Both the position numbers and the translations under genes were made by a program. The notes below the pieces were generated by a model that did no database searches, was not told the origin of the DNA, and worked only from the letters and a program-made list of their open reading frames with translations. DNA of 46,225 bases from Actinomycetes bacterium (GTDB taxonomy: Bacteria > Actinomycetota > Acidimicrobiia > Acidimicrobiales > Palsa-688): the NCBI GenBank assembly GCA_021850325.1, contig JAJZMF010000002.1, forward strand, positions 1-46,225, given 5' to 3'. Positions 33,422 through 46,074 of this stretch are shown piece by piece. Positions within the stretch are counted from its first letter, which is position 1; every line of letters begins with the position of its first letter.

Positions 33422-33548
33422 GCAGTTCGGGCCGGGGTGCCCGGGCCAAATGCACCGGGCGGGGGCGGGCACCGCGCAGGCAACGGCCGGGTGCCCACAC
33501 GGGTAAAACATTAGCGTTTTGGCCCTGGCGGCCACCCGGGCACACCGG

Positions 33549-33588
33549 CACGGGCACACGGGCACGGGCACACGGGCACGGGCACACG
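33549..33588. repeat. 14-bp tandem repeat, 2.9 copies
   Basis: The unit CACGGGCACACGGG is repeated exactly at 33549-33562 and 33563-33576, with a partial third copy to 33588. It is a simple tandem repeat, not a CRISPR array, since no spacers are present. Confidence 0.85.
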
Positions 33589-34504
33589 CGCCCGGCCGTG
33601 CTGCCCCTGCGGCGCCCACCACGGCAACGGCGCCCCGGGCCCGTTGGAGGAACAGCGATTTTGCCGTTGTGGGACAAGGGATCTTTATGCCACCGGGGAG
33701 GTCGCGGGCAGGGCGCACCGAGGCCCGGCCGCAGTGCGCTGCGTACCGGCACCGCCGCCACCGCGACCTGCCGCCGGGCGCAAGGGGCCCGGGTAGCCCC
33801 CGGGGCCACCAGAGGGCGCCGAACAGGTGGCCCCCACCGGCGCGCGCCCGCGCCACGCGACAGCCGGGACGAGGCGGCCCGGGAGCCGGCAGCGCCGGCC
33901 GTGCCGGGCCGCTGTCCCCGGTCGTCCCCATCCCTACCCGCCCGGCCCCCCGCCCACACAGCGGCCACCGGGACCGGGCCGGACGGCGCCGCCCCGGCGG
34001 CCCGGCGGCCCGGACGAGGCCGGACGAGCTGACCGGCAAGCGCAGAAGCCCTCGTCGCAGCCGAGCGGCACCGGCAGCGGCAGGCCTGCAGGGCCTACGC
34101 GACAGGCGCGAGAGGTCCCGCGTTGGGCCGGGCCGGTGCTGGCTCCTTGCCGGCCGGCGGGCGGGGCCCGGGGCTGGAGCGGTGAGGTGGCGGCACCGGC
34201 AGCCGGTGCGCCGGGCGGGCTGGCCCACGCCGAGCCCCGTCCAAGGGCCACAGGTGGGGCGGTTGGCTGGGGGGACCGGGGGACGGCTTCGGGCCGCGGG
34301 CCGCCCGGTCGCCACGCTGGCGGGGACGCCAGGCCCTCCGAGCAGGGCTTTTGGCCGGCACCGCGCCTACCGGCCGACGAGGAGGGCCCTGCTGCCCCAG
34401 GGCCAAAGGCTAAAGTTCAACTAGAGGTTGAGGCACTCGTGGCCCGTCCTCCCGTCTTCTCCGGGGCCCCCGGGCCGGCCCCGGTACCGGCGGCCCGATC
34501 TCGC

Positions 34505-35740: not shown

Positions 35741-35917
35741 GGCTGGAAGCTACCCGCTCGCTGGCTATGCTTGGCCCCGGTCCGAGCCTCCCGAGCCGGC
35801 CCCACCGCCCACCCCAGGCGTGCGGTGAGGGGTGGCCCGTCGTGGCCAGGACCGCTCAAGGGGAAAGTCATCAGGTCTTACCGGCTTCCGGCGGAAGGAG
35901 GCCGGTCGGAGGTTTGC

Positions 35918-36760
35918 GTGCAGTTGTTGGGACCTACGCGCTGGGAGCGGGGCCGGGTACCCGCTGGCCTGGCGGGCGCCCGTCACCGCTCTCCCCTGGT
36001 GCAGGCGGAGCGCGACCAGGCCGTGTTCAGCCTGGGCAGCGTCGGGCGCTTCCTGGTGCGCCCGGGCCGGCCGGTCGTGGTGGAGGCGGCGCCAGGCGCG
36101 ACCGAGGCCGACATCGAGTGCATGCTGGCCGGCCCCGTGGCCGCCCTGCAGTGCTGCCTGGAGGGCGTGCCCTGCCTGCGGGGTGCCGCCGTTGAGATGT
36201 CGGGGCGGGGCGTGCTCATCGTCGGGGGGGCAAGGGGCACCTCCGCTCTCGCTGCCGCCCTGGCCTGCCGGGGGGCGAAGGTGGTCGCCGACTCGGTGCT
36301 CTGCACCGGGGGAGGCCCGCTCTCGGTATGGCCGGCCCCGGGCAACCCCTCCGGCCGCCTGGCCCTGTGGCCCGATGTGGCACGGGCCATAGGCCTCGAC
36401 CCGGCGCAGGGGGTGCCGGTGAGGCCCGCGCTGGGCCTGCGCCAGTTCGCGCTGGGCCCCGGTGCCACCGCTCCGGTGCCCATCTCGGCCGCGGTGATGA
36501 CCACGGTCGACTCCGCACTGGGCGGCGACCGGCCCAGCGTGGAGCGGGAGGCCATGAGCCAACTGGAGGCGGTGCGGGCTCTGCTCGACGCCAGCTGGCA
36601 CTCGCCCGTGGTGGGCGACCTCGGCCGCCGACGTGACGAGTTCGAGCACCTCACGCAGTTGGCAGCCACCGTCCCCATGTGGAGGCTGCGCCGGGCCGGT
36701 ACCACCGTGGCCGGCACTCTCGAGGAGCTGGCCCGTCAGACCGAGGAAGCCCTCGGGTGA
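35918..36760 (+). CDS. HPr-kinase-like protein with degenerate P-loop (probable pseudokinase)
   Basis: A 280-aa protein with the outline of HprK-like peptide kinases: RFLVRPGRPVVVEAAPGATEADIECMLAGPVAALQCCLEGVPCLRGAAVEM, then VLIVGGARGTSALAAALACRGAKVVADSVL, and GRLALWPDVARAIGLDPAQG (the KLWPD-type segment). The Walker A expected as GPSGxGKST is VGGARGTSA (residues 102-110), without Lys-Ser/Thr, and the usual LHAS upstream is LRGA. ATP binding is therefore probably lost. GTG 35918 has GGAGG 5 nt upstream. Its stop overlaps the sulfotransferase GTG (GTGA). It may be a scaffold or peptide-binding partner. A second, intact family member lies at the right end of the window. Confidence 0.7.
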   Translation: MQLLGPTRWERGRVPAGLAGARHRSPLVQAERDQAVFSLGSVGRFLVRPGRPVVVEAAPGATEADIECMLAGPVAALQCCLEGVPCLRGAAVEMSGRGVLIVGGARGTSALAAALACRGAKVVADSVLCTGGGPLSVWPAPGNPSGRLALWPDVARAIGLDPAQGVPVRPALGLRQFALGPGATAPVPISAAVMTTVDSALGGDRPSVEREAMSQLEAVRALLDASWHSPVVGDLGRRRDEFEHLTQLAATVPMWRLRRAGTTVAGTLEELARQTEEALG

Positions 36761-37587
36761 GCGGGCGCATGGTCTGGCTGGCCTCGTACCCCAAGTCGGG
36801 CAACACATGGCTGCGCTCGGTCTACACGGCCCTGGTGCAGGGCGCCGTGGACATCAACGCCCTCATGGGCGACGCCCTGGCCGCCACACGGGCCTTCCTC
36901 GAGGTCACCCTGGGCGTGAGGACGGCCGACCTGACCCACGACGAGGTCGACCAGCTGAGGCCACTGGCCGACGACGCCGCCGCGCCGCGCATGAGCGGGG
37001 ACCGCTGGCGCAAGGTCCACGACGCCCTACTGGCAGGCCCTGCGGGCCTTGTCGTCTCCCCCGGTGCCACCCGTGCCGCCCTGTACATCGTGCGCGACCC
37101 ACGAGACGTGGTGGTCTCTTTCGCCCACCACTCCAGCATGTCCCTGGAGGCCACCGTGGCCTACATGGCCGACCCCGGTGCCGCCTTCTACGCCGGGGAC
37201 GACGCCCGCCCCCTGCAAGTGCGCCAACGCCTGGGCACCTGGTCCCAGCACGTGCTCAGCTGGGCCGACGCCACCGCCTTCCCGGTCCACGTGCTGCGTT
37301 ACGAGGACTGCGCCGAGCAGCCGGTACAGGCCTTCGGGCAGGCCTTTGCCGCCGCCGGCCTGGAGCGGACGGAGGCGGACGTGGCAGCCGCAGTGGAGAA
37401 GGCGTCCTGGGGACGCCTCCGGGCCCAGGAGCGCGAGGTTGGCTTCCGGGAGCGAGCCGGGCACGAGGTCACCTTCTTCCGCAGGGGCAGGGCCGGGTCC
37501 TGGAGGCAGGAGCTGCCCGCCTACCTGGCACGACAGGTGGAGCGGGACCACGCCGCCGTGATGGAGCGTTTCGGCTACCTGTCCTGA
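36757..37587 (+). CDS. PAPS-dependent sulfotransferase
   Basis: A 276-aa Sulfotransfer_1-type enzyme. The 5'-phosphosulfate-binding loop SYPKSGNTWLR is at residues 10-20; the 3'-phosphate motif YIVRDPRDVVVSF is near residue 110; later segments VLRYEDC and ERDHAAVMERFGYL are typical. It transfers sulfate from PAPS to a hydroxyl or amine. GTG 36757 overlaps the upstream stop, so it is co-translated with the degenerate HprK-like protein. Its 3' end overlaps the convergent cyclase-like gene by 13 bp. Being inside a RiPP-like locus it may sulfate the peptide, whose core has Tyr, Ser and Thr; a carbohydrate or lipid acceptor is equally allowed by the motifs. Confidence 0.88.
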   Translation: MSGRMVWLASYPKSGNTWLRSVYTALVQGAVDINALMGDALAATRAFLEVTLGVRTADLTHDEVDQLRPLADDAAAPRMSGDRWRKVHDALLAGPAGLVVSPGATRAALYIVRDPRDVVVSFAHHSSMSLEATVAYMADPGAAFYAGDDARPLQVRQRLGTWSQHVLSWADATAFPVHVLRYEDCAEQPVQAFGQAFAAAGLERTEADVAAAVEKASWGRLRAQEREVGFRERAGHEVTFFRRGRAGSWRQELPAYLARQVERDHAAVMERFGYLS

Positions 37588-38789
37588 GCAGGGGGCCTGT
37601 TCTCGGCGAGCCAGGCCGCCTGCAGCATGACGAAGCTCTGCGCCGCCGGGACCGGCTTCAGCCACTCCGCCCTCAGGGCCTCGGGGTCGACCAGGCCGGG
37701 GTCGGCGCCCGCCCCCGACCAGCGACGGGCGAAGTCCCGGGCCAGGGGGCCCAGGTAGGCCGTGTTGAAGACGGCCTTGGTGCTCCGCCCGATGGTGCGC
37801 TGGGGCAGCAGGTCGCCCGCCAGGTAGGCCATGGCCGCGGCCCGGGAGCTGAAGCCGAGCCGGCCACCGGCCCGGGCCAGGGCGGCGACGAAGGCAGGCT
37901 CGAGCAGCGGGTCGCAGTGCGCTACGGCGTAGGTCGCAGCCAGCGCCGCGACGTTGGCCCTGATGAGGCTGGTCCGGCGCGATGCGAGCTCCCAGCGCAG
38001 CCCTCCCCGGGCAAGGAGCGGCTCCCCCGCCCTCTCCCAGGCGAGCTGCGAAGCCATCGCCGACAGGGCGGCAGGGCGCAGCCAGGCCCGCGGGGAGAAC
38101 GCCTCGTAACGGCGCCGGAGCAGGCGGTAGCGCACGGGCCGGGGGGCGAGCTGGGCAAGGACGGCCCGGGCTGCGGCAGGCCGGGCTGTCCAGCGGGGTG
38201 ACGACAGGGCGAAGCGGAGGTAAGTGGCCCGTCGGGGCCCGAGGACCTGGTCGCCCCCCTCCCCGCTCAGGTGGGAGCCGCCGCGGGCTGCCCCCAGGGA
38301 CTCACCGAGCACGTAGAGCATCGGAGGGAACACGACTCCGTGCCGGAGCAGGAAGCCCTGGGCCCGGGCACCGACCAGCTCCATGTCCGCTCCTGCCCCC
38401 ACGCGCTGCCAGTCGGCGAGGCCGAGGTGCCGGACCACCATCTCCTGCCATGGGCCTTCTTCGGCCTCGGGGGCGTCGCCGAAGTAGCGCGTGTACGGCA
38501 CGGGCAGAGGCAGGCCTTCCCGTCGGGCCACGTGCACAGCGACGGCCAGGACCAGCGACGAGTCCCTTCCTCCGGAAAAACTCACCAAGCAGGGTGGCTT
38601 TTGGAGCGCACCGAGCACCAACTGCTCCAACACCCCCCGGGGCCCCATTGCCCGCTCCGCCGGCCGGTCGGCCTCCGGGAGGGCCGCAGCGCCACGGCCA
38701 AGAGCCATCCCGGCTGCCTGCTCGAGGCCGCTGAGCCTCAGGAACCCCACCCCGGCGCGACCGACGGGCCCCGGTCCGGCAGCCCTCAC
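37575..38789 (-). CDS. Asparagine-synthetase-like (lasso-cyclase-like) protein lacking the glutaminase domain
   Basis: A 404-aa protein with the ATP-pyrophosphatase domain of asparagine synthetases. The PP-loop is SFSGGRDSSLV (SGGRDS at 72-77), the second nucleotide segment is LSGEGGDQVLG (175-180), and LLPQRTIGRSTKAVFNTAYL is near the C-terminus. Full AsnB and lasso cyclases have an N-terminal glutaminase-like domain; here only about 65 residues precede the PP-loop, so that domain is missing. Lasso C proteins use this chemistry to adenylate a side-chain carboxylate and close a macrolactam. GTG 38789 is only 7 nt downstream of the stop of a lasso-leader-type precursor, so the two are surely co-expressed. 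Peptide activation is the likely role. Confidence 0.82.
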   Translation of the reverse strand: MRAAGPGPVGRAGVGFLRLSGLEQAAGMALGRGAAALPEADRPAERAMGPRGVLEQLVLGALQKPPCLVSFSGGRDSSLVLAVAVHVARREGLPLPVPYTRYFGDAPEAEEGPWQEMVVRHLGLADWQRVGAGADMELVGARAQGFLLRHGVVFPPMLYVLGESLGAARGGSHLSGEGGDQVLGPRRATYLRFALSSPRWTARPAAARAVLAQLAPRPVRYRLLRRRYEAFSPRAWLRPAALSAMASQLAWERAGEPLLARGGLRWELASRRTSLIRANVAALAATYAVAHCDPLLEPAFVAALARAGGRLGFSSRAAAMAYLAGDLLPQRTIGRSTKAVFNTAYLGPLARDFARRWSGAGADPGLVDPEALRAEWLKPVPAAQSFVMLQAAWLAENRPPAQDR

Positions 38790-38796
38790 CGCGGGC

Positions 38797-39003
38797 TCAG
38801 CTCACGTTCATATCGGTGCCCACCCGCCCGCCGTTCCCGGTGGGAATGTAGAAGTCCGATGTGGAGCTCGGGACTTTGCCGCTCTGAGGAGGGGTGATGG
38901 TGGGGGTCCCGGTGCCGGCGGTCAGGTCCGCCAGCGAGCCCATCACCTGGATGAGGGGTGCCTGGTACGTAATGCCGGCGGGGCGAACAGAGCTCTCGGC
39001 CAT
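38797..39003 (-). CDS. RiPP precursor peptide with lasso-type leader
   Basis: A 68-aa peptide. Residues 13-30 read YQAPLIQVMGSLADLTAG and match the actinobacterial lasso leader motif YxxPxLxxxGxxxxxTxG at Y13, P16, I18 (Leu position), G22, T28 and G30; this motif is known to be bound by the lasso B1 recognition element. By analogy with lariatin, cleavage would fall before G30, leaving a 39-residue core. That core has no Asp/Glu at positions 7-9 (I36, T37, P38), so a normal lasso ring cannot form; acids appear at D50 and D64. It is Thr/Ser/Pro/Gly-rich, has one Tyr (Y52, within SDFYIP), and ends in Ser68, the residue type phosphorylated by lasso-linked HprK-like kinases. A -10-like TAATCT ends 8 nt before the ATG, suggesting leaderless expression. 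Confidence 0.78.
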   Translation of the reverse strand: MAESSVRPAGITYQAPLIQVMGSLADLTAGTGTPTITPPQSGKVPSSTSDFYIPTGNGGRVGTDMNVS

Positions 39004-39221: not shown

Positions 39222-42200
39222 TCAGGCGGCGCCCCGGCACGGGGGCGAGTAGGCCCGGCCCTGCACGTACTGTGCCCACTCCCGGGGCGTGACGGGGCTG
39301 CCCGCCAGGGCGCACACCCGGGCCGCCACCGCGGCCGAGCGGTAGAGCCACACGTGGAGCACGTGGTCGCTGCCACTGGCCACCAGGTAGCGCCCGTCCG
39401 GGCTGAAGGCCACAGCGAAGACGGAGTCCTGGGCCGCCGTCAGCACGTCGCGGGCCACGGCTCGGGCCGGGTCGCTCACGTCCCAGAGCCACACCTGGTG
39501 CTCGGTGGTGGCCGCGGCCAGGGTGCGGCCGTCCGGGCTGAAGGCCACCTGGAAGACCTCACCGTTGGGCCCGGCGAGCGGCGGCCCCGCCGGCACCGGG
39601 TGGGCGGGCGAGGCCACGTCCCACAGGCGCACCGTGCCGTCGGCGCTGCTGGCCGCCAGGAGACGGCCCGAGGGGGAGAACGCCGTGGAGTACACGTAGC
39701 TGGCAAAACCGCCCAGCCGGGCCAGCAGCACCGGGTGGGCGGGGTGGGCGAGGTCGAAGAGCAGGGCCCGGCCCGTGCTGCTGGCCGCGGCGAGCAGCCT
39801 GCCGTGCGGGCTCACCGAGAGGCCGAGAGCCTGCCCGGGCACGTGCATGACGCTCAGCAGCCGGGGGTGGGAGGGCCGCGCGACGTCCCAGACCAGGACC
39901 TGCGAGGCGTCGTCGGCCGCCACCAGCAGGCGGCCCCCGTCCAGGAAGCGGGCCTGCTCCACGTCGGGCCTGGTCCCGGCCAGCAGCGGGCCCACCTGGC
40001 GGGGGTGGGCCGGCTGGGCGATGTCGAAGAGCGCCATCTGGCCCCGGGCGTTGGCCGCCGCCATCAGCCGGCCGTCCGGGCTCACAGCGGCGGTGCCGGC
40101 CACGGGCCCGAAGCCCGCCGGTGGCACCACGTCAGCCAGGTGACGGGGTGCAAAGGGGTCGGCCATGTCCCACAGCGAGAGGTCACCCCGGGCCCCTCCG
40201 GTGACCGCGGCCAGCTCGCGGCCACCCTGCAGGTAGGACAGGAAGTAGACGTTCCCTGACAGCTGGGCGCTGCCCGGAGGGGGCACCTGCCACAGCGTGG
40301 TGGTGCCGGCGTTGGTGGCCGAGGCCAGTCCGTGGTTGCCGAGCGCCAGCACCGAGCTGACCGGGCGGGGCTGGGGCAGGGTGGCGAGGCTCGACCACCC
40401 GGCCGTGCGCCACAGGTGCACGGTGCCGTCCGAGCTGCCCGCGACCAGCAGCGAACCGTCGGCGGAGAAGCTCACCGAGTTGACGTAGCTCGTGGCGCCG
40501 ACCAGGGGGGCGAGGGGCCGGGCCGAGGCCGCCCCGGTGCCCAGTGCCCAGCGGCGCACCAGGCCGTCGTCGCCCCCGGTGACCAGGTAGTGGCCGTCGG
40601 GGCTGAAAGCCAGCGACTCCAGGGTGGCGCCGCCCGCCCCGGTCAGCGCCCGGGCCCGGCGGCGGGGGCGCCAGAGCAGGAGCAGGCCGTCGGTGCCCGC
40701 CGCGGCCAGGTACTTGCCGTCGGGGCTGAAGGCCACCGCCTTCAGCGCCCCGGGCCCTTTGGCCTGCAGCCGTCCGGCCGCCACGGGTGAGGACCAGCCC
40801 TGCTGGCCCGCATGCCACAGGTGCACCTCGCCGTCGGAGGCCGCCCCGGCCAGGGCCAGGCCGTCGGGGCTGAAGGCCAGCGAGTAGACGGTGCCGCCGA
40901 AGCCGCCGAGCACAGGCCCGGGCACCGGGCGGCCCGGGCGGGCCACGTCGAACAGCTGCACCCGGCGATCGGTGCCCCCCACCGCCAGCCAGGCGCCGTC
41001 GGGGCTGAGGGCGAGGGCGAAGTCCTGGTTGGCCGGCCCCCCCGCCCGTAGGTGGCCCAGCGGCTGAGGGGTGCCGGTGGCGCCCAGGCGGTAGAGCTCG
41101 ACGTCGTCGGCCCCCGAACGGGCCACGGCCAGGAGGCGGCCACCCCGGTCGGTGGCCAGGAAGGCCGGCCCGGGCGGGCCGAGCACCCGGGTCGGCATCT
41201 CGCCCGCCGAGGTGCCCACCAGGGCCGAGCGGGCCTGCAGGGTGGGCGAGATGCGGTAGCCGGCCAGCGCCAGCTGCATGGCCAGGGAGGGGTCGACCCC
41301 CTCCAGCTGGTCGGCCTCGATGGCCACCTGGCGGCTGAGGGCGCGGTTGCGGGCCAGGTTGGCCGAGGCCCGGGCCGACCAGGCGTAGCCGGCCAGCACC
41401 ACGGCGACCAGGGCCAGGACGGCCACCACCCCCAGGAGCTGGCGGGTGCGGCGCACACTGTGCCGGGCCAGGCGCTGCTCGGCCTCGTCGTACGCCCCGC
41501 TCGCCTGCAGGAAGGCCTGCTCGGCCTCGGTCAGGCCCGCCTGCTCGGCCGGGCCCGACGCCCAGTCGACGACGGCCTCCAGGCGGGCGCCCCGGTAGAG
41601 CAGGGAAGGGTCGCGCCCCGAAGCCAACCAGGCGGACACGTCATCGGCCAGCTTGTGGTGCAGGCGCACCGTGGCCCGGTCCTCCCCCAGCCACTGACCG
41701 AGGCGGGGCCAGGCCGACAACAGGGCCTCGTGGCTGACCTCCACCCACCCCGAGTGGGCGGTGAGCAGGCGGGCCGAGATGAAGCGCTCGAGCACCTCGG
41801 CCGCGGCGGCCGCCTCGGCGGGGTCGGCCAGCTGCACCAGCGCCCCCCGCCTCACCCGGCGCCGGGTGAAGGGCTCGTCCCCCTCCACCCGCACCAGGCG
41901 GCGGAAGAGCCGGGCCGCCACCTGGCGCTCGTGGGGCGCAAGGGACTGGTAGAGCTCCTCGGCCGCCTGGCTCACCGCTCCCCGCAGGCCCCCACTGGCG
42001 CGGTAGTCGGCCAGGGTGAGCTCGTTGTGCGTCCCGTGCAACCAGGCGGCCAGCAGGGCGTAGGAGAGCAGGGGCAGGGCCCCCGCCTGCCCCGGCCCGG
42101 CCCCGGCCATGTCGGCCAGGACCACGTCCACCAGGCCCTCCTCCACTGCCGCTCCCACCTGGTGGGCCGGGCCGACGACGACCTCCCGGAGCTCCGCCCT

Positions 42201-43007
42201 GGTCATGGGCCCGAGCAGGAAGTTGGCGTGCTGGAGGGCGGGGAGCAGTTCGAGCTGGCCGGCGGCGGCCCGGTAGAAGTCGGCCCGCAGCCCGACCACG
42301 ACCAGCCCCTGGCGCCCGCCCCGGCGGGGCAGGGCGGAGAGCAGGCCCTCGCAGGCCACCTGGGGGGCCGAGAAGCACTCCTCGAACTGGTCGACCACCA
42401 CCACCGAGCGGCGGTCGCGCTCCTCCAGGGCCTCCAGTGCGTGGGGGCCGGGGACCACCACCGTGCAGGACCAGTCCTCCCCGGGCCGGTCGAGCGCCCC
42501 CGAGGCCACAGCGGGCACCAGGCCGGCCCGCAGGAGCGAGGACTTGCCGCTCCCCGAGGGGCCGAGCACGACCAGGACCCCGTGGCTCGGCCCGGGGTCG
42601 TCGCGCAGGGCGGCGAGGCGCCCGACCAGCGCCTGCACCGCCTCCCGGCGACCGAAGAAGATCGGGGCGTCCTGCACCTCGAAGGGCTCCAGGCCGCGGT
42701 AGGGAGGTGCGGCCCGGGCCACTCTCCCGTCGGTGGCGGTGCGGGCGCGCCACAGGGCAGCCTCCCATTCGGCCAGGTCCTCGGGCGAGCTGACGCCGCA
42801 CAGCTCCAGGAGCCGGCGGAAGAGCGGCATCTGGCTCTGGCCCGGCAGGTGGCGCCCGCTCAGGTAGTCGCCCACCGTGGCCGTAGGGGCCCCTGCCCTG
42901 CGGGCCAGCTCCCGCACGGTGAAGCCGGACTGCTGGCGCAGCTCGGTCAGTTCGCGCGCCAGGTCGGTCCTGGTCTGTACGGCCCGAGGCCGTCCCGGTG
43001 CCGGCAA
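39222..43007 (-). CDS. HTH - nSTAND ATPase - transmembrane - WD40 repeat protein
   Basis: A protein of about 1261 aa. Residues about 13-60 are an Xre-type helix-turn-helix (LARELTELRQQSGFTVRELARRAG). From residue 102 comes the nSTAND module: PPYRGLEPFEVQDAPIFFGRR, Walker A LGPSGSGKSSLL (148-159), and Walker B VVVVDQFEECF. A single transmembrane helix (about 520-540, LLGVVAVLALVAVVLAGYAW) separates it from a C-terminal propeller of a dozen or so WD40 repeats (repeated FSPDG...LAAA..DG.V.LW). Such STAND proteins act as switch ATPases in signalling or conflict systems. The start is uncertain: TTG 43007 (AAGGGGG 4 nt upstream) is chosen, GTG 43028 is an alternative. It lies upstream of, and on the same strand as, the RiPP precursor. 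Confidence 0.88.
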   Translation of the reverse strand: MPAPGRPRAVQTRTDLARELTELRQQSGFTVRELARRAGAPTATVGDYLSGRHLPGQSQMPLFRRLLELCGVSSPEDLAEWEAALWRARTATDGRVARAAPPYRGLEPFEVQDAPIFFGRREAVQALVGRLAALRDDPGPSHGVLVVLGPSGSGKSSLLRAGLVPAVASGALDRPGEDWSCTVVVPGPHALEALEERDRRSVVVVDQFEECFSAPQVACEGLLSALPRRGGRQGLVVVGLRADFYRAAAGQLELLPALQHANFLLGPMTRAELREVVVGPAHQVGAAVEEGLVDVVLADMAGAGPGQAGALPLLSYALLAAWLHGTHNELTLADYRASGGLRGAVSQAAEELYQSLAPHERQVAARLFRRLVRVEGDEPFTRRRVRRGALVQLADPAEAAAAAEVLERFISARLLTAHSGWVEVSHEALLSAWPRLGQWLGEDRATVRLHHKLADDVSAWLASGRDPSLLYRGARLEAVVDWASGPAEQAGLTEAEQAFLQASGAYDEAEQRLARHSVRRTRQLLGVVAVLALVAVVLAGYAWSARASANLARNRALSRQVAIEADQLEGVDPSLAMQLALAGYRISPTLQARSALVGTSAGEMPTRVLGPPGPAFLATDRGGRLLAVARSGADDVELYRLGATGTPQPLGHLRAGGPANQDFALALSPDGAWLAVGGTDRRVQLFDVARPGRPVPGPVLGGFGGTVYSLAFSPDGLALAGAASDGEVHLWHAGQQGWSSPVAAGRLQAKGPGALKAVAFSPDGKYLAAAGTDGLLLLWRPRRRARALTGAGGATLESLAFSPDGHYLVTGGDDGLVRRWALGTGAASARPLAPLVGATSYVNSVSFSADGSLLVAGSSDGTVHLWRTAGWSSLATLPQPRPVSSVLALGNHGLASATNAGTTTLWQVPPPGSAQLSGNVYFLSYLQGGRELAAVTGGARGDLSLWDMADPFAPRHLADVVPPAGFGPVAGTAAVSPDGRLMAAANARGQMALFDIAQPAHPRQVGPLLAGTRPDVEQARFLDGGRLLVAADDASQVLVWDVARPSHPRLLSVMHVPGQALGLSVSPHGRLLAAASSTGRALLFDLAHPAHPVLLARLGGFASYVYSTAFSPSGRLLAASSADGTVRLWDVASPAHPVPAGPPLAGPNGEVFQVAFSPDGRTLAAATTEHQVWLWDVSDPARAVARDVLTAAQDSVFAVAFSPDGRYLVASGSDHVLHVWLYRSAAVAARVCALAGSPVTPREWAQYVQGRAYSPPCRGAA

Positions 43008-43237
43008 GTGGCCCCCTTCCAGCGTCACCACCGCAATGGATCCGGACCTGTGATCGTAGACCTCGCAGCTTGAGGTACCAGTCGAGGGCGTCCTGCCTAG
43101 GACCACCCTGAGCAGCACAGACGCGCCGGGGCGCCTGTCCGAGGTTGTCCGGAGAAAGGCCTCCACGCCGCTCGGGCGCCACCCGGGGTGCCGACGGCGG
43201 CACCCGCGGCGTCCAACGGCCTGGCAGAGTGGCCAGC

Positions 43238-44272
43238 GTGGGGAGACCACTGGCGTGCCGCTCAGCGGCCGGGGTGCACCGCCGCAGCACCGCCCGTGCC
43301 GCCCTGTTGGGCCTGGCCGTGCTCCTCGGGGCCGGGGTGGCCCCCGTGGGCGCCGGGGCCAGCTCCATGCCCCTGCCCGCCCCGCCCGTCCAGCCCGAGC
43401 CCTGCCCGCCGCCCCCTCTCCCGCCCGGGCCCCCGGCACCACCGCTGCGCCCACCGTTGGTGGCCACCTCCCGGGTCCCCCTCGTGGCCTCGCCCCCGGC
43501 GCGCCGGGTGGACCTGGCGGCCATCACGGGCAAGGGGATCTGGCTCACCCTGTGGCCGGGCTCGCATCCCGACCTGGCCGCCATCGTGGCCCGTGCCCGT
43601 GCCGCAGGCATAGACCAGCTCTGGGTGCGCACCGGGAGCACGGCCGACGGCTACTACGGGGGAAAGGTGCTGGCCGCCCTGGTGCCCCTGGCCCACGCGG
43701 CCGGGGTGCACGTGGTGGCCTGGGACTTCCCCACCCTGTCCGACCCCCGGGCCGACGCCCATCGGGCGGAGCAGGCCCTGGCCAGTGGGGCCGACGCCTT
43801 CAGCGCCGACATCGAGACGGCGGCCGAGGGGACCTACCTGGGCGTCCGGCGGGTGCGCTACTACCTGTCACTGGTGCGCCGCTATGCCGGGCCGCGCCCC
43901 GTGGTGGCCACCGTGCTGCCCCCCGGGCCCTACTGGTCACGGGCCTACCCCTACGCGGCCATGGCCCCCTTCGTCGACGCCTTCGCCCCCATGGTCTACT
44001 GGTCCTGCGCCGAGCCGGGGGCCGCGGTGGCCCAGGCCGTCGTGCCCCTGCGCCGCCTGCGCCCGGTGGTGCCCATCGGCCAGGACTTCAACATGGCGTC
44101 CATCGGGGGCCGCCACGGCCTGCCCAGCCCGGCCGAGATCTGGCGCTTCCTGTACGTGGCCCACAGCCTGGGGGCCATCGGGGCCAGCCTGTACGACCTG
44201 GAGTCGGGGGGCCCGGCCCAGTTCGCAGCCCTGGCTGACTACCCCTGGGCCCTCCACCCGGCCCGGGGCTGA
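43238..44272 (+). CDS. Secreted TIM-barrel glycoside-hydrolase-like protein
   Basis: A 344-aa exported protein. The signal peptide (RRSTARAALLGLAVLLGAGVAPVGAGASS, about residues 15-45) is followed by a Pro-rich linker and a barrel-like domain from about residue 90: GIWLTLWPGSHPDLAAIVARARAAGIDQLWVRTGS, GVHVVAWDFPTLSDP, ADAFSADIETAAEGTYLG, PVVATVLPPGPYW, FVDAFAPMVYWSC, VPIGQDF and GAIGASLYDLESG. The arrangement resembles secreted glycosidase-like proteins of unknown specificity; D/E residues in DIET and MVYW contexts could be catalytic. GTG 43238 is chosen because a -10-like CAGAGT ends exactly 7 nt before it and no ribosome site is visible; GTG 43229 is in frame. Function beyond export is inferred. 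Confidence 0.65.
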   Translation: MGRPLACRSAAGVHRRSTARAALLGLAVLLGAGVAPVGAGASSMPLPAPPVQPEPCPPPPLPPGPPAPPLRPPLVATSRVPLVASPPARRVDLAAITGKGIWLTLWPGSHPDLAAIVARARAAGIDQLWVRTGSTADGYYGGKVLAALVPLAHAAGVHVVAWDFPTLSDPRADAHRAEQALASGADAFSADIETAAEGTYLGVRRVRYYLSLVRRYAGPRPVVATVLPPGPYWSRAYPYAAMAPFVDAFAPMVYWSCAEPGAAVAQAVVPLRRLRPVVPIGQDFNMASIGGRHGLPSPAEIWRFLYVAHSLGAIGASLYDLESGGPAQFAALADYPWALHPARG

Positions 44273-44295: not shown

Positions 44296-44311
44296 TAGAG
44301 TCCAGTGGGTG
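44296..44311 (+). promoter_or_regulatory. -10-like element for a leaderless mRNA
   Basis: TAGAGT (44296-44301) ends 7 nt before GTG 44309, with no Shine-Dalgarno between. The same 7-nt spacing is seen at 43225-43238 (CAGAGT) and 20491-20504 (CATCCT). Confidence 0.45.
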
Positions 44312-45076
44312 CTCACCTCCTCCGCAAAGACCGTCCTCCGGCGGTGGCGGGGGCGGCCCTGGTCCCACCGGCTGGGCTACGGGTGGTTCCTGGCCTCCAC
44401 CAAGCAGTCCCGCCGTTCGCTCCTGGCCCAACTGACGAGGCCGGCCAACCTCTTCCAGCCCCACATCGACACCGCCCCCGACCGCTACCCAGCCGTCTTC
44501 GCCCTGCTGGCCCGTGAGCTCGGTGGGCGGCCCGGGGCCCGGGTGCTGTCCTTCGGCTGCTCCAACGGGGACGAGGTGTTCAGCCTGCGCCGCTACCTGC
44601 CGGGCGCCCGGGTGCGGGGCCTGGACATCAACTGGGCCAACGTCCGCGAGTGCCGGGCCCGCCAGCGGGCCTGCGGCGACCCCATGGTCAGCTTCGCCCG
44701 GGCCGGGTCGGCCGAGGGGGAGCCGGCGGAGGCCTACGACGCCGTGCTGGCCATGGCCGTGCTCCGCCACGGCGACCTCTCCGACGGTGACCGGGACAGC
44801 TGCGAGGGGGTGATCGGCTTCGAGGCCTTCGAGGCCACGGTCACCGGCCTGGCCCGGTGCGTGAAGCCGGGCGGGCTCCTGCTCATCGAGCACTCGAACT
44901 TCCGCTTCGCCGACACCGCGGTGTCCGCCGGTTTCGTGCCCGCCGTGACCAGGCACCGGGCGGAGGTGGACCGGCGCACCCCCGTTTACGGGCCGGACAA
45001 CCGCCGCCTGGCGGAGCAGGCCGAGGTGACGGTCGGCTTCCGCAAGCTGGCCCCGGCCCGCCGCCCAGCCCGGTGA
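44309..45076 (+). CDS. SAM-dependent methyltransferase-like protein
   Basis: A 255-aa class I methyltransferase-like fold. Motif I is ARVLSFGCSNGDEVFSLRRYLPGARVRGLDINWANVRECRAR (SFGCSNGDE in place of the usual LGCGxG), followed by AYDAVLAMAVLRHGDL and a later LARCVKPGGLLLIEHSNFRFAD. The form resembles CheR-like or lipopolysaccharide-type methyltransferases of actinobacteria. The acceptor is unknown. GTG 44309 is supported by a -10-like TAGAGT 7 nt upstream (leaderless). The HprK-like kinase gene follows after 17 nt with its own ribosome site, so the pair is probably one transcript and may act on the same molecule. Confidence 0.78.
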   Translation: MLTSSAKTVLRRWRGRPWSHRLGYGWFLASTKQSRRSLLAQLTRPANLFQPHIDTAPDRYPAVFALLARELGGRPGARVLSFGCSNGDEVFSLRRYLPGARVRGLDINWANVRECRARQRACGDPMVSFARAGSAEGEPAEAYDAVLAMAVLRHGDLSDGDRDSCEGVIGFEAFEATVTGLARCVKPGGLLLIEHSNFRFADTAVSAGFVPAVTRHRAEVDRRTPVYGPDNRRLAEQAEVTVGFRKLAPARRPAR

Positions 45077-45093
45077 GGACAAGGAGCCCGAGG

Positions 45094-46074
45094 TTGCACC
45101 AGTACCAGCTGCACGGCCTGTGCGTGCAGACGGAGGCCCCCCTGGACGGCTACCGGGCGACGGAGCTCCCCGCAGGAGGCTTACCGGACCTGCGCGTCGA
45201 GCTGGCCGGCGCCCGGCCCGTGCCCGACGAGGTACCCCCCGGCCTGCTGGTGCAGAGCCACACCAGTCCCTCGCCCAGCCGCCGGGGCTCCTACAGCACG
45301 GCCCGGCTCCCCGACGGTGGCCTGGTGGTACGCGCCCACGGGGCGGTCGACTTCGAGCTGGGCCCCGACCTCCGCCTGGCCCGGGCCTGGGTGGGCCCGG
45401 GGCACGACCCGGCCCTGGTCTGGCTGCTCGTCCCCGGCCTGCTGGTCTCGGTGCTGCTCGGGCTCCGAGGTGAGCTGGTACTGCACGCCAGCGCCGTCGA
45501 GGCCGGGGGCCGGGCCCTGGCCCTTTCGGCGCCCCCCGGGGTGGGCAAGTCCACCGTCGCGGCCCTGGCCTGCTCGGTCGGGGCCCGGCTGGTCACCGAC
45601 GACGTCCTGCGGGTCGACCTCGGCTCGGGCGCCCCCCGCTGCTACCTCGGAGCGGCCCGGAGCAGGCTCCGGCGCCCGGCCGGCGAGCTGAGCCCCACCT
45701 ATGCCCGGGCCTCCGTCCCCACCAGCAGCGACGGCCGCTACCTGCTGGAGGCGCCCGCCTCCGAGCTCGAGCTGGCGCCCCTCAGCGCCCTGGTGCTCCC
45801 GGTCCCGGCCCGGGACCGCGACGAGCTGGCCCTCCGGGCCGTCACCGGCCACCGGGCCGTGCTGGAACTGGCCCGGGCACTGCGTGTCCAGGGCTGGCGC
45901 GATGAGGCGGTCAACCGCCAGATGTTCCTCGCCATCACCCGGCTCGCTGCCACCGTGCCCCTGCTACGGGCGCTGGTCCCCTGGGGCCCGCCCTTCGACC
46001 CCGCGGTCAGCCTCCGCCTCCTGGAGCAGACGGGCCTCGTCCCCGGTCCTCGACCGGCACCCCCCACCGCCTGA
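45094..46074 (+). CDS. HPr-kinase-like (lasso-type peptide serine kinase-like) protein with intact P-loop
   Basis: A 326-aa protein of the HprK-like family found in peptide-modification loci. The N-terminal domain is YQLHGLCVQTEAPLDGY. The kinase core begins ELVLHASAVEAGGRALALSAPPGVGKSTVAALA, with Walker A APPGVGKST at residues 146-154 and H131 in LHAS, then LVTDDVLRVD with D169/D170. A final helix region contains NRQMFLAITRLAATVPLLRALVPWG. In paeninodin-type loci such kinases phosphorylate the C-terminal serine of the precursor. TTG 45094 is chosen because AAGGAG (45081-45086) lies 7 nt upstream and the family N-terminus follows. It complements the degenerate paralogue near 36 kb. Confidence 0.78.
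   Translation: MHQYQLHGLCVQTEAPLDGYRATELPAGGLPDLRVELAGARPVPDEVPPGLLVQSHTSPSPSRRGSYSTARLPDGGLVVRAHGAVDFELGPDLRLARAWVGPGHDPALVWLLVPGLLVSVLLGLRGELVLHASAVEAGGRALALSAPPGVGKSTVAALACSVGARLVTDDVLRVDLGSGAPRCYLGAARSRLRRPAGELSPTYARASVPTSSDGRYLLEAPASELELAPLSALVLPVPARDRDELALRAVTGHRAVLELARALRVQGWRDEAVNRQMFLAITRLAATVPLLRALVPWGPPFDPAVSLRLLEQTGLVPGPRPAPPTA

What the first reader, a model, noticed from the sequence alone, without database searches (positions are those of the whole stretch)
37575..39003. Lasso-leader RiPP precursor with a non-lasso core, 7 nt from a truncated cyclase
Seen: a 68-aa ORF carries every position of YxxPxLxxxGxxxxxTxG and is followed after 7 nt by an asparagine-synthetase-like gene lacking the glutaminase domain. 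The predicted core starting at G30 has no Asp/Glu at positions 7-9, which a lasso ring needs. Known: that leader motif recruits lasso B1 proteins, and lasso C proteins make the macrolactam. Inference: the leader and an ATP-pyrophosphatase are used for another linkage, perhaps a large ring to D50 or D64, an amide to a partner, or an ester. No B1/B2 genes are visible, so they act in trans or lie outside the window.
Basis: partly seen in the sequence, partly recalled or inferred. Interest (0 to 1): 0.88.

Follow-up and report, generated by a model that had tools for sequence, protein, structure and literature searches.

The report
Lasso-type peptide with shifted ring residues
An uncultured actinobacterium encodes a small peptide and a stripped-down ring-closing enzyme of the lasso-peptide kind, but the peptide lacks the usual ring residue and instead carries a lysine and an aspartate at a fixed spacing that recurs in unrelated relatives, which suggests that these enzymes can close rings in a new way.

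Summary
The 68-aa precursor (38797-39003, -) lies 7 nt before a 404-aa synthetase-only cyclase (37575-38789, -). A model of 21 relatives' precursors, built without this one, finds it at E 2.6e-10. The pair belongs to a widespread, mostly actinobacterial lasso-type family with short cyclases; relatives carry B1, B2, HPr-kinase-like and ABC-transporter genes, and this genome has B2 at the edge of another contig.

Of 121 relatives' cores, 93 have the acid at positions 7-9 and 12 at position 10 only. Sixteen, including this one, have it further in. In 15 of those 16 an Asp has a Lys 6 or 7 residues before it, in at least five cyclase lineages. Paralogous precursors beside one cyclase keep that spacing while shifting against the leader. 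Here the pair is K43-D50.

I infer that the cyclase activates the Asp and the Lys side-chain amine replaces the N-terminal amine, giving a 26- or 29-atom ring, within the known lasso range. No product was seen.

The parts
38797..39003 (-). 68-aa precursor peptide gene (leader residues 1-29, predicted core 30-68)
38917..39003 (-). leader with YxxPx[L/I]xxxGxxxxxT(-2) motif (Y13, P16, I18, G22, T28)
   Evidence: NCBIfam lasso_leader_L3 just under cut-off
38875..38877 (-). codon of Lys43 (core position 14), proposed nucleophile
38854..38856 (-). codon of Asp50 (core position 21), proposed acid activated by the cyclase
37575..38789 (-). 404-aa cyclase, synthetase (PP-loop) domain only: SGGRDSS at 72-78, SGEGGDQ around D180, K338
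36757..37587 (+). PAPS-type sulfotransferase (start inferred from relatives; longest ORF from 36679)
   Evidence: PF00685 E 1.8e-18; alignment
35900..36760 (+). HPr-kinase-like protein with a P-loop that lacks the Lys (start approximate; longest ORF from 35480), always beside the sulfotransferase
45094..46074 (+). second HPr-kinase-like gene near the right contig edge; relation to the precursor not shown
   Evidence: family 1; HPrK profile 341 bits, (no Pfam hit)

Best explanation
This is a precursor-cyclase pair of a mostly actinobacterial lasso-type RiPP family with short (synthetase-only) cyclases. The leader is bound by a B1/RRE protein and cut by B2 after T28-A29 (by homology). The cyclase adenylates Asp50, as lasso cyclases do with the ring acid, but the amine that attacks is the side chain of Lys43, seven residues upstream, not the N-terminal amine. 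The product would be a Lys43-Asp50 isopeptide ring (29 ring atoms; 26 in relatives with spacing 6; an ordinary Gly1-Asp9 lasso ring has 28) with an N-terminal extension, threaded or not. The C-terminal Ser is probably capped by phosphate or, given the adjacent sulfotransferase, sulfate. Shown: the genes, the conserved leader, the conserved pair, the intact cyclase motifs, the Lys-Asp spacing. Inferred: cleavage site, activation of Asp50, the Lys linkage, threading, tailoring.
For: (1) Family: 22 homologous cyclase genes in 10 of 60 related genomes and many named Actinomycetota, with leader-bearing precursors and B1, B2, HPrK and ABC genes in the neighbourhood. (2) Most members look like ordinary lassos: acid at core position 9 in 69 of 104 and at 7-9 in 79. 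(3) In the extended set of 121 cores, 16 have no acid at 7-10, and 15 of these have a Lys 6 or 7 before an Asp, against 7 of 93 with the acid at 7-9 (Fisher 2.5e-12, not corrected for kinship). Offset 6: 12/16, offset 7: 4/16, every other offset at most 2. (4) Taking one core from each of five lineages, composition-keeping shuffles reach the result for the best of all adjacent offset pairs in 0.055% and for 6/7 in 0 of 20,000. (5) The Lys-Asp spacing stays while the distance to the leader moves: two precursors beside one cyclase in L143 (K4-D10 and K7-D13) and in L016 (K6-D12 and K5-D11); L134/L049 (K1-D7 and K2-D8). (6) The first core residue is Gly/Ala in 72 of 93 cores without the pair but in 10 of 28 with it (Fisher 7e-5), as expected if the N-terminus is no longer the nucleophile. 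(7) Two odd-type cores found after the idea fit: L174 K6-D12, L189 K4-D10. (8) Window clade: window K14-D21, L023 K9-D16, L022 K7-D14, L025 K13-D20. (9) Cyclase model mean pLDDT 92.6, closest to the synthetase halves of TsnB9, asparagine, carbapenam and beta-lactam synthetases.
Against: No product, transcript or enzyme assay. The Lys-Asp pattern was found after looking at the data. One core found later, L183 (Gemmatimonadota), has the acid outside 7-10 and no Lys. The window's own small clade uses spacing 7 and counts as one lineage. Two lasso-like clades with acid at 10 and no Lys also exist, so ring size can vary without Lys. B1 was not found in the genome.
Confidence: 0.5

Rival explanations
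1. An ordinary 8- or 9-residue N-terminal lasso ring to Asp50, with the leader cut further downstream (by B2 at another site, or by a second protease), so that residues 30-41 are an extended leader; in the window the ring would be G42-K-V-P-S-S-T-S-D50.
For: In the window the residue eight before D50 is Gly (G42), which would give a 9-residue ring; the precursor profile aligns the stretch between leader and Asp as an insertion.
Against: In the 14 far-acid cores the residue eight before the Asp is I, I, I, Y, V, P, N, N, A, A, W, S, S or G, and the one seven before is as mixed, whereas ordinary members mostly start with Gly or Ala (59 of 79). It does not explain why Lys is kept. T(-2) is invariant in 22 precursors.
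Confidence: 0.2
2. A large macrolactam from the N-terminal amine of G30 to D50 (21-residue ring).
For: D50 is conserved as an S-D pair in the two nearest relatives; cyclase motifs are intact.
Against: Ring sizes would be 21, 16 and 14 in three members of one small clade, and 11-24 across the family; it does not explain the Lys. In engineered lassos, changing the ring by one residue usually cuts production sharply (PMC13352647), though a ten-residue ring was made in vitro (PMC8498205).
Confidence: 0.1
3. No ring: the peptide stays linear and is tailored at its C-terminal Ser (phosphate or sulfate), like the linear polyphosphorylated peptides of Bacillota that share a lasso-like leader motif.
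For: Known precedent of a lasso-like leader used for linear peptides (PMC13381572); Ser-rich core, C-terminal Ser, and HPrK-like and sulfotransferase genes beside it; 82 of 104 cores end in Ser.
Against: In that precedent the cyclase is absent, while here an intact cyclase lies 7 nt away and the pair recurs; the Lys-Asp spacing would be unexplained.
Confidence: 0.12
4. The core is decaying, or the far-acid cores are mis-assigned precursors, and the cyclase acts on another peptide.
For: B1 is missing from the assembly; the genome is a 49-contig draft.
Against: The precursor profile finds only this one precursor in the genome; far-acid cores are clustered on the cyclase tree (6 changes against 11.6 in shuffles, 0 of 500), and the window clade keeps a K...SD motif.
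Confidence: 0.08

Closest known systems
Lasso peptides (class II type; NCBIfam lasso_leader_L3 NF033521, lasso B2 NF033537, lasso PqqD NF033530, lasso cyclase NF033535/NF033561)
   Same: Leader motif with Thr at -2; B1, B2, cyclase and ABC genes in relatives; most family cores have the acid at 7-9.
   Different: Cyclase lacks the first roughly 200-240 positions of the curated lasso cyclase models; this core has no acid at 7-9 and carries a Lys 7 before the Asp.
Paeninodin-like phosphorylated lasso peptides (HPr-kinase-like tailoring of the C-terminal Ser; PMC8498205)
   Same: C-terminal Ser, HPrK-like genes; putative sulfotransferase genes were also noted in some Firmicutes lasso clusters.
   Different: Here the HPrK-like protein beside the sulfotransferase has lost the P-loop Lys in all six loci.
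Linear polyphosphorylated peptides (LPP) of Bacillota (PMC13381572)
   Same: Lasso-like leader motif and HPrK-like kinase put to another use.
   Different: LPP clusters have a signal-peptidase-like protease and no cyclase; here a cyclase is adjacent.
Graspetides (macrolactams and macrolactones from amino-acid side chains; PMC13097080; made by ATP-grasp ligases, general knowledge)
   Same: The proposed bond type, a Lys to Asp side-chain amide, is known there.
   Different: Unrelated enzyme (ATP-grasp there, asparagine-synthetase-like PP-loop here) and unrelated leader.
Asparagine synthetase B, beta-lactam synthetase, carbapenam synthetase, TsnB9
   Same: Fold of the synthetase domain (Z 14.4-18.9) and ATP-pyrophosphatase motifs.
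   Different: About 15% identity; no N-terminal glutaminase-like domain.

Membership tests
Lasso peptide biosynthetic family | Leader with YxxPxL-type RRE-binding motif and Thr at -2 | tested here: met
   Ile replaces Leu; NCBIfam L3 model 1.5 bits under its cut-off, while 19 of 22 relatives match it at E <= 0.1
Lasso peptide biosynthetic family | Asparagine-synthetase-like cyclase | tested here: met
   PF00733 over cut-off, fold, weak matches of relatives to lasso cyclase models; N-terminal domain absent
Lasso peptide biosynthetic family | B2 leader peptidase in the genome | tested here: met
   C42:16640-17056, PF13471 over cut-off; NF033537 23.2 bits under its cut-off of 33; at a contig edge, not in the window
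Lasso peptide biosynthetic family | B1 (PqqD-like RRE) in the genome | tested here: inconclusive
   None found with PF05402 or a family profile, in a 95% complete draft of 49 contigs whose B2 lies at a contig edge
Lasso peptide biosynthetic family | Asp/Glu at core position 7-9 closing an N-terminal ring | tested here: not met
   First acid at core position 21; so it is not filed as a lasso peptide proper
Lasso peptide biosynthetic family | Threaded ring in the product | not testable with these tools
   Needs the peptide
Short-cyclase lasso-type family (defined here) | Synthetase-only cyclase of about 400 aa, homologous over its length, beside an L3-type precursor | tested here: met
   cyclase clade with L022 and L023 (SH-aLRT 94)
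Linear polyphosphorylated peptides | No macrolactam cyclase; SpI-like leader peptidase | tested here: not met
   A cyclase is adjacent; a SpI-like gene was not specifically sought
Paeninodin-like phosphorylated lasso | C-terminal Ser and an HPrK-like kinase | tested here: inconclusive
   C-terminal Ser present; the neighbouring HPrK-like protein lacks the P-loop Lys; a second HPrK-like gene lies at 45094-46074

The most novel reading that the evidence does not exclude
A class of lasso-type cyclases makes Lys-Asp side-chain macrolactams (spacing 6 or 7, 26 or 29 ring atoms) inside the peptide, freeing ring position from the leader cut and leaving an N-terminal tail; a threaded form would be a lasso with two free ends.
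Probability: 0.45. Interest if true: 0.87.

Novelty: new variant of a known kind. Interest (0 to 1): 0.74.

Why it matters
If true, the rule used to find and design lasso peptides (acid at 7-9, N-terminal amine as nucleophile) misses part of the family, and it defines a way to make side-chain amide rings with asparagine-synthetase-like enzymes. It would give a natural test of what a lasso cyclase needs from its substrate, with paired natural precursors (L143, L016) that differ only in the distance to the leader. The short cyclases also show which part of the lasso cyclase is dispensable.

Tried and rejected
Direct single-sequence scan of genome contigs found no relative; the alignment scan found 151, best 80 kept. 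PqqD/B1 searches of the own genome were empty. tblastn against plasmids: no match. Using loci as search centres failed until genome handles were obtained. Exact end overlap between C3 and C42 contig ends: none of 10 bases or more, so joining them is only a guess. Precursors for the cyclases of L112 and L120, which lie in a clade of Lys-type members, were not found, so that test stayed open. An ester to Ser/Thr was considered: the residue before the Asp is not kept. Cutting at the Lys (new N-terminus after it) was considered: it would leave 6-residue rings (19 atoms) at spacing 6. Promoter and terminator scan: nothing. Papers: no report of a Lys side-chain ring in a lasso-type product in the held library; the library is incomplete.

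Full report
What is there. The window is the whole of contig C3 (46,225 bp) of a 3.18 Mb draft genome in 49 contigs, 95% complete. On the minus strand a 68-aa ORF (39003-38797) is followed after 7 nt by a 404-aa ORF (38789-37575). The small ORF reads MAESSVRPAGITYQAPLIQVMGSLADLTAG|TGTPTITPPQSGKVPSSTSDFYIPTGNGGRVGTDMNVS with G30 shown before the bar; with T28 as the -2 residue the core starts at G30. The large ORF has only PF00733; its frame is closed four codons upstream of the start.

Is it real? I built a profile from 21 precursors of relatives without this one; in the six-frame translation of the window it finds only this ORF (E 2.6e-10). Y13, P16, G22 and T28 are invariant in the 22-row alignment. 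So the leader is real and conserved, and so is the pairing with the cyclase.

The family. Searching 60 related genomes found 22 further cyclase genes, several in multi-copy (one genome has eight). A scan with the alignment found 151 related stretches, the best 80 in named organisms: Acidimicrobiia, Nocardioides, Jiangella, Amycolatopsis, Tessaracoccus, Isoptericola, Blastococcus, Solirubrobacterales, and single Gemmatimonadota and Acidobacteriota bins. All are short: curated lasso cyclase models match only from about position 196-258 on. The AlphaFold model (mean pLDDT 92.6) matches the synthetase halves of TsnB9, asparagine, carbapenam and beta-lactam synthetases. The PP-loop motif SGGRDSS, the GGD loop and K338 are invariant or nearly so. 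Around relatives lie B1 (PqqD), B2 (Transglut_core3), HPr-kinase-like proteins, an ABC transporter and in some a sulfotransferase. In the window's own genome B2 and the ABC transporter lie at the right edge of contig C42; B1 was not found.

Where the acid sits. Of 104 cores numbered from T(-2), 79 have an acid at 7-9 (69 at position 9), 11 at 10 only, and 14 elsewhere. So the family as a whole looks like a lasso family, and the window's core is an exception. On the cyclase tree the exceptions are clustered: window with L022 and L023 (94); L037, L016 and L026 (100); L117, L127 and L137 (100); in all 6 changes, at least 5 forced by well-supported branches.

The Lys-Asp pair. Every one of the 14 exceptions has a Lys 6 or 7 residues before an Asp; shuffles of the same cores give 3.3 on average. 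After more searching the set is 121 cores: 15 of 16 exceptions, 6 of 12 with acid at 10, and 7 of 93 with acid at 7-9 have the pair. Of the exceptions found after the idea, L174 fits (K6-D12) and L183 does not; L189, with its acid at position 10, also carries the pair (K4-D10). Kinship inflates the simple test, so I took one core per lineage from five lineages and let the shuffles choose their best pair of adjacent offsets: 0.055% reach the observed value. Two loci carry two precursors beside one cyclase, and in both the pair keeps its spacing of 6 while its distance to the leader shifts by 3 (L143) or 1 (L016). The first core residue, mostly Gly or Ala in ordinary members, is free in members with the pair (10 of 28 against 72 of 93).

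Reading. The cyclase adenylates the Asp in either case. In ordinary members the N-terminal amine attacks; in these the Lys side chain would. Counting ring atoms: Gly1-Asp9 gives 28 (the same count is quoted for lihuanodin, PMC13352647); Lys(i)-Asp(i+6) gives 26 and Lys(i)-Asp(i+7) gives 29, within the 22-29 of 7- to 9-residue rings with Asp or Glu (my count). In the window this is K43-D50. A later cut that makes an ordinary nine-residue ring is the main rival; in the window alone it fits well (G42...D50), but across the exceptions the residue that would start the ring is unconstrained while the Lys is kept.

Tailoring. 82 of 104 cores end in Ser, the residue that HPrK-like enzymes phosphorylate in paeninodin-type lassos (PMC8498205). 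In six loci, the window included, a sulfotransferase with intact PAPS loops sits beside an HPrK-like protein whose P-loop lacks the Lys. I suggest, as inference only, that this dead kinase presents the C-terminal Ser for sulfation. Putative sulfotransferase genes were noted before in some Firmicutes lasso clusters (same paper).

Limits. Nothing here shows a product. The pattern was found by looking, then tested on few new cases. The window's clade has spacing 7, whereas most independent lineages have spacing 6, so the window's own case is weaker than the family-wide one. Counts of genomes are lower bounds, because the wide searches scored few candidates per genome.

Noticed in passing
window 35900-37587; L022, L023, L024, L026, L033: HPrK-like protein with a P-loop without Lys (GTS, GHS or GVS in place of GKS/T) is paired with a PAPS-type sulfotransferase in all six loci; possibly sulfation of the C-terminal Ser in place of phosphorylation.
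   Followed up: partly
L133, L144, L198 (also L140, L141): Cores of Georgenia, Oceanitalea and relatives start with Gly and have a conserved Asp10-Asn11, which would give ten-residue N-terminal rings, not known from natural lassos to my knowledge.
   Followed up: no
cyclase residue 270 (window) and its column: Ser in most cyclases with Lys-type precursors and Arg in most others; confounded by kinship, but also seen in L110 and L117.
   Followed up: partly
genome G026 (L022, L023, L026, L029, L030, L031): One 61% complete genome carries eight short cyclase genes, nearly all with their own precursor.
   Followed up: no
L027, L028, L029: A large protein (977 aa in L028 and L029) next to the cyclase in three loci, with only a weak HAD-like hydrolase match near its C-terminus.
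   Followed up: no
window 39222-43454 (-): nSTAND1 ATPase with many WD40 repeats and an N-terminal stretch that resembles an HTH, directly upstream of the precursor.
   Followed up: no
window 44309-46074 and contig C42 right edge (L041 16640-17056): Methyltransferase and HPrK-like gene end 150 bp from the right edge of C3; B2 and ABC transporter start at the right edge of C42. The two edges may be neighbours, but no overlap of 10 bases or more was found.
   Followed up: partly
window 33540-33590 (+): Short GC-rich tandem repeats (cgggcacacgggcacgggcacac) in a non-coding stretch.
   Followed up: no
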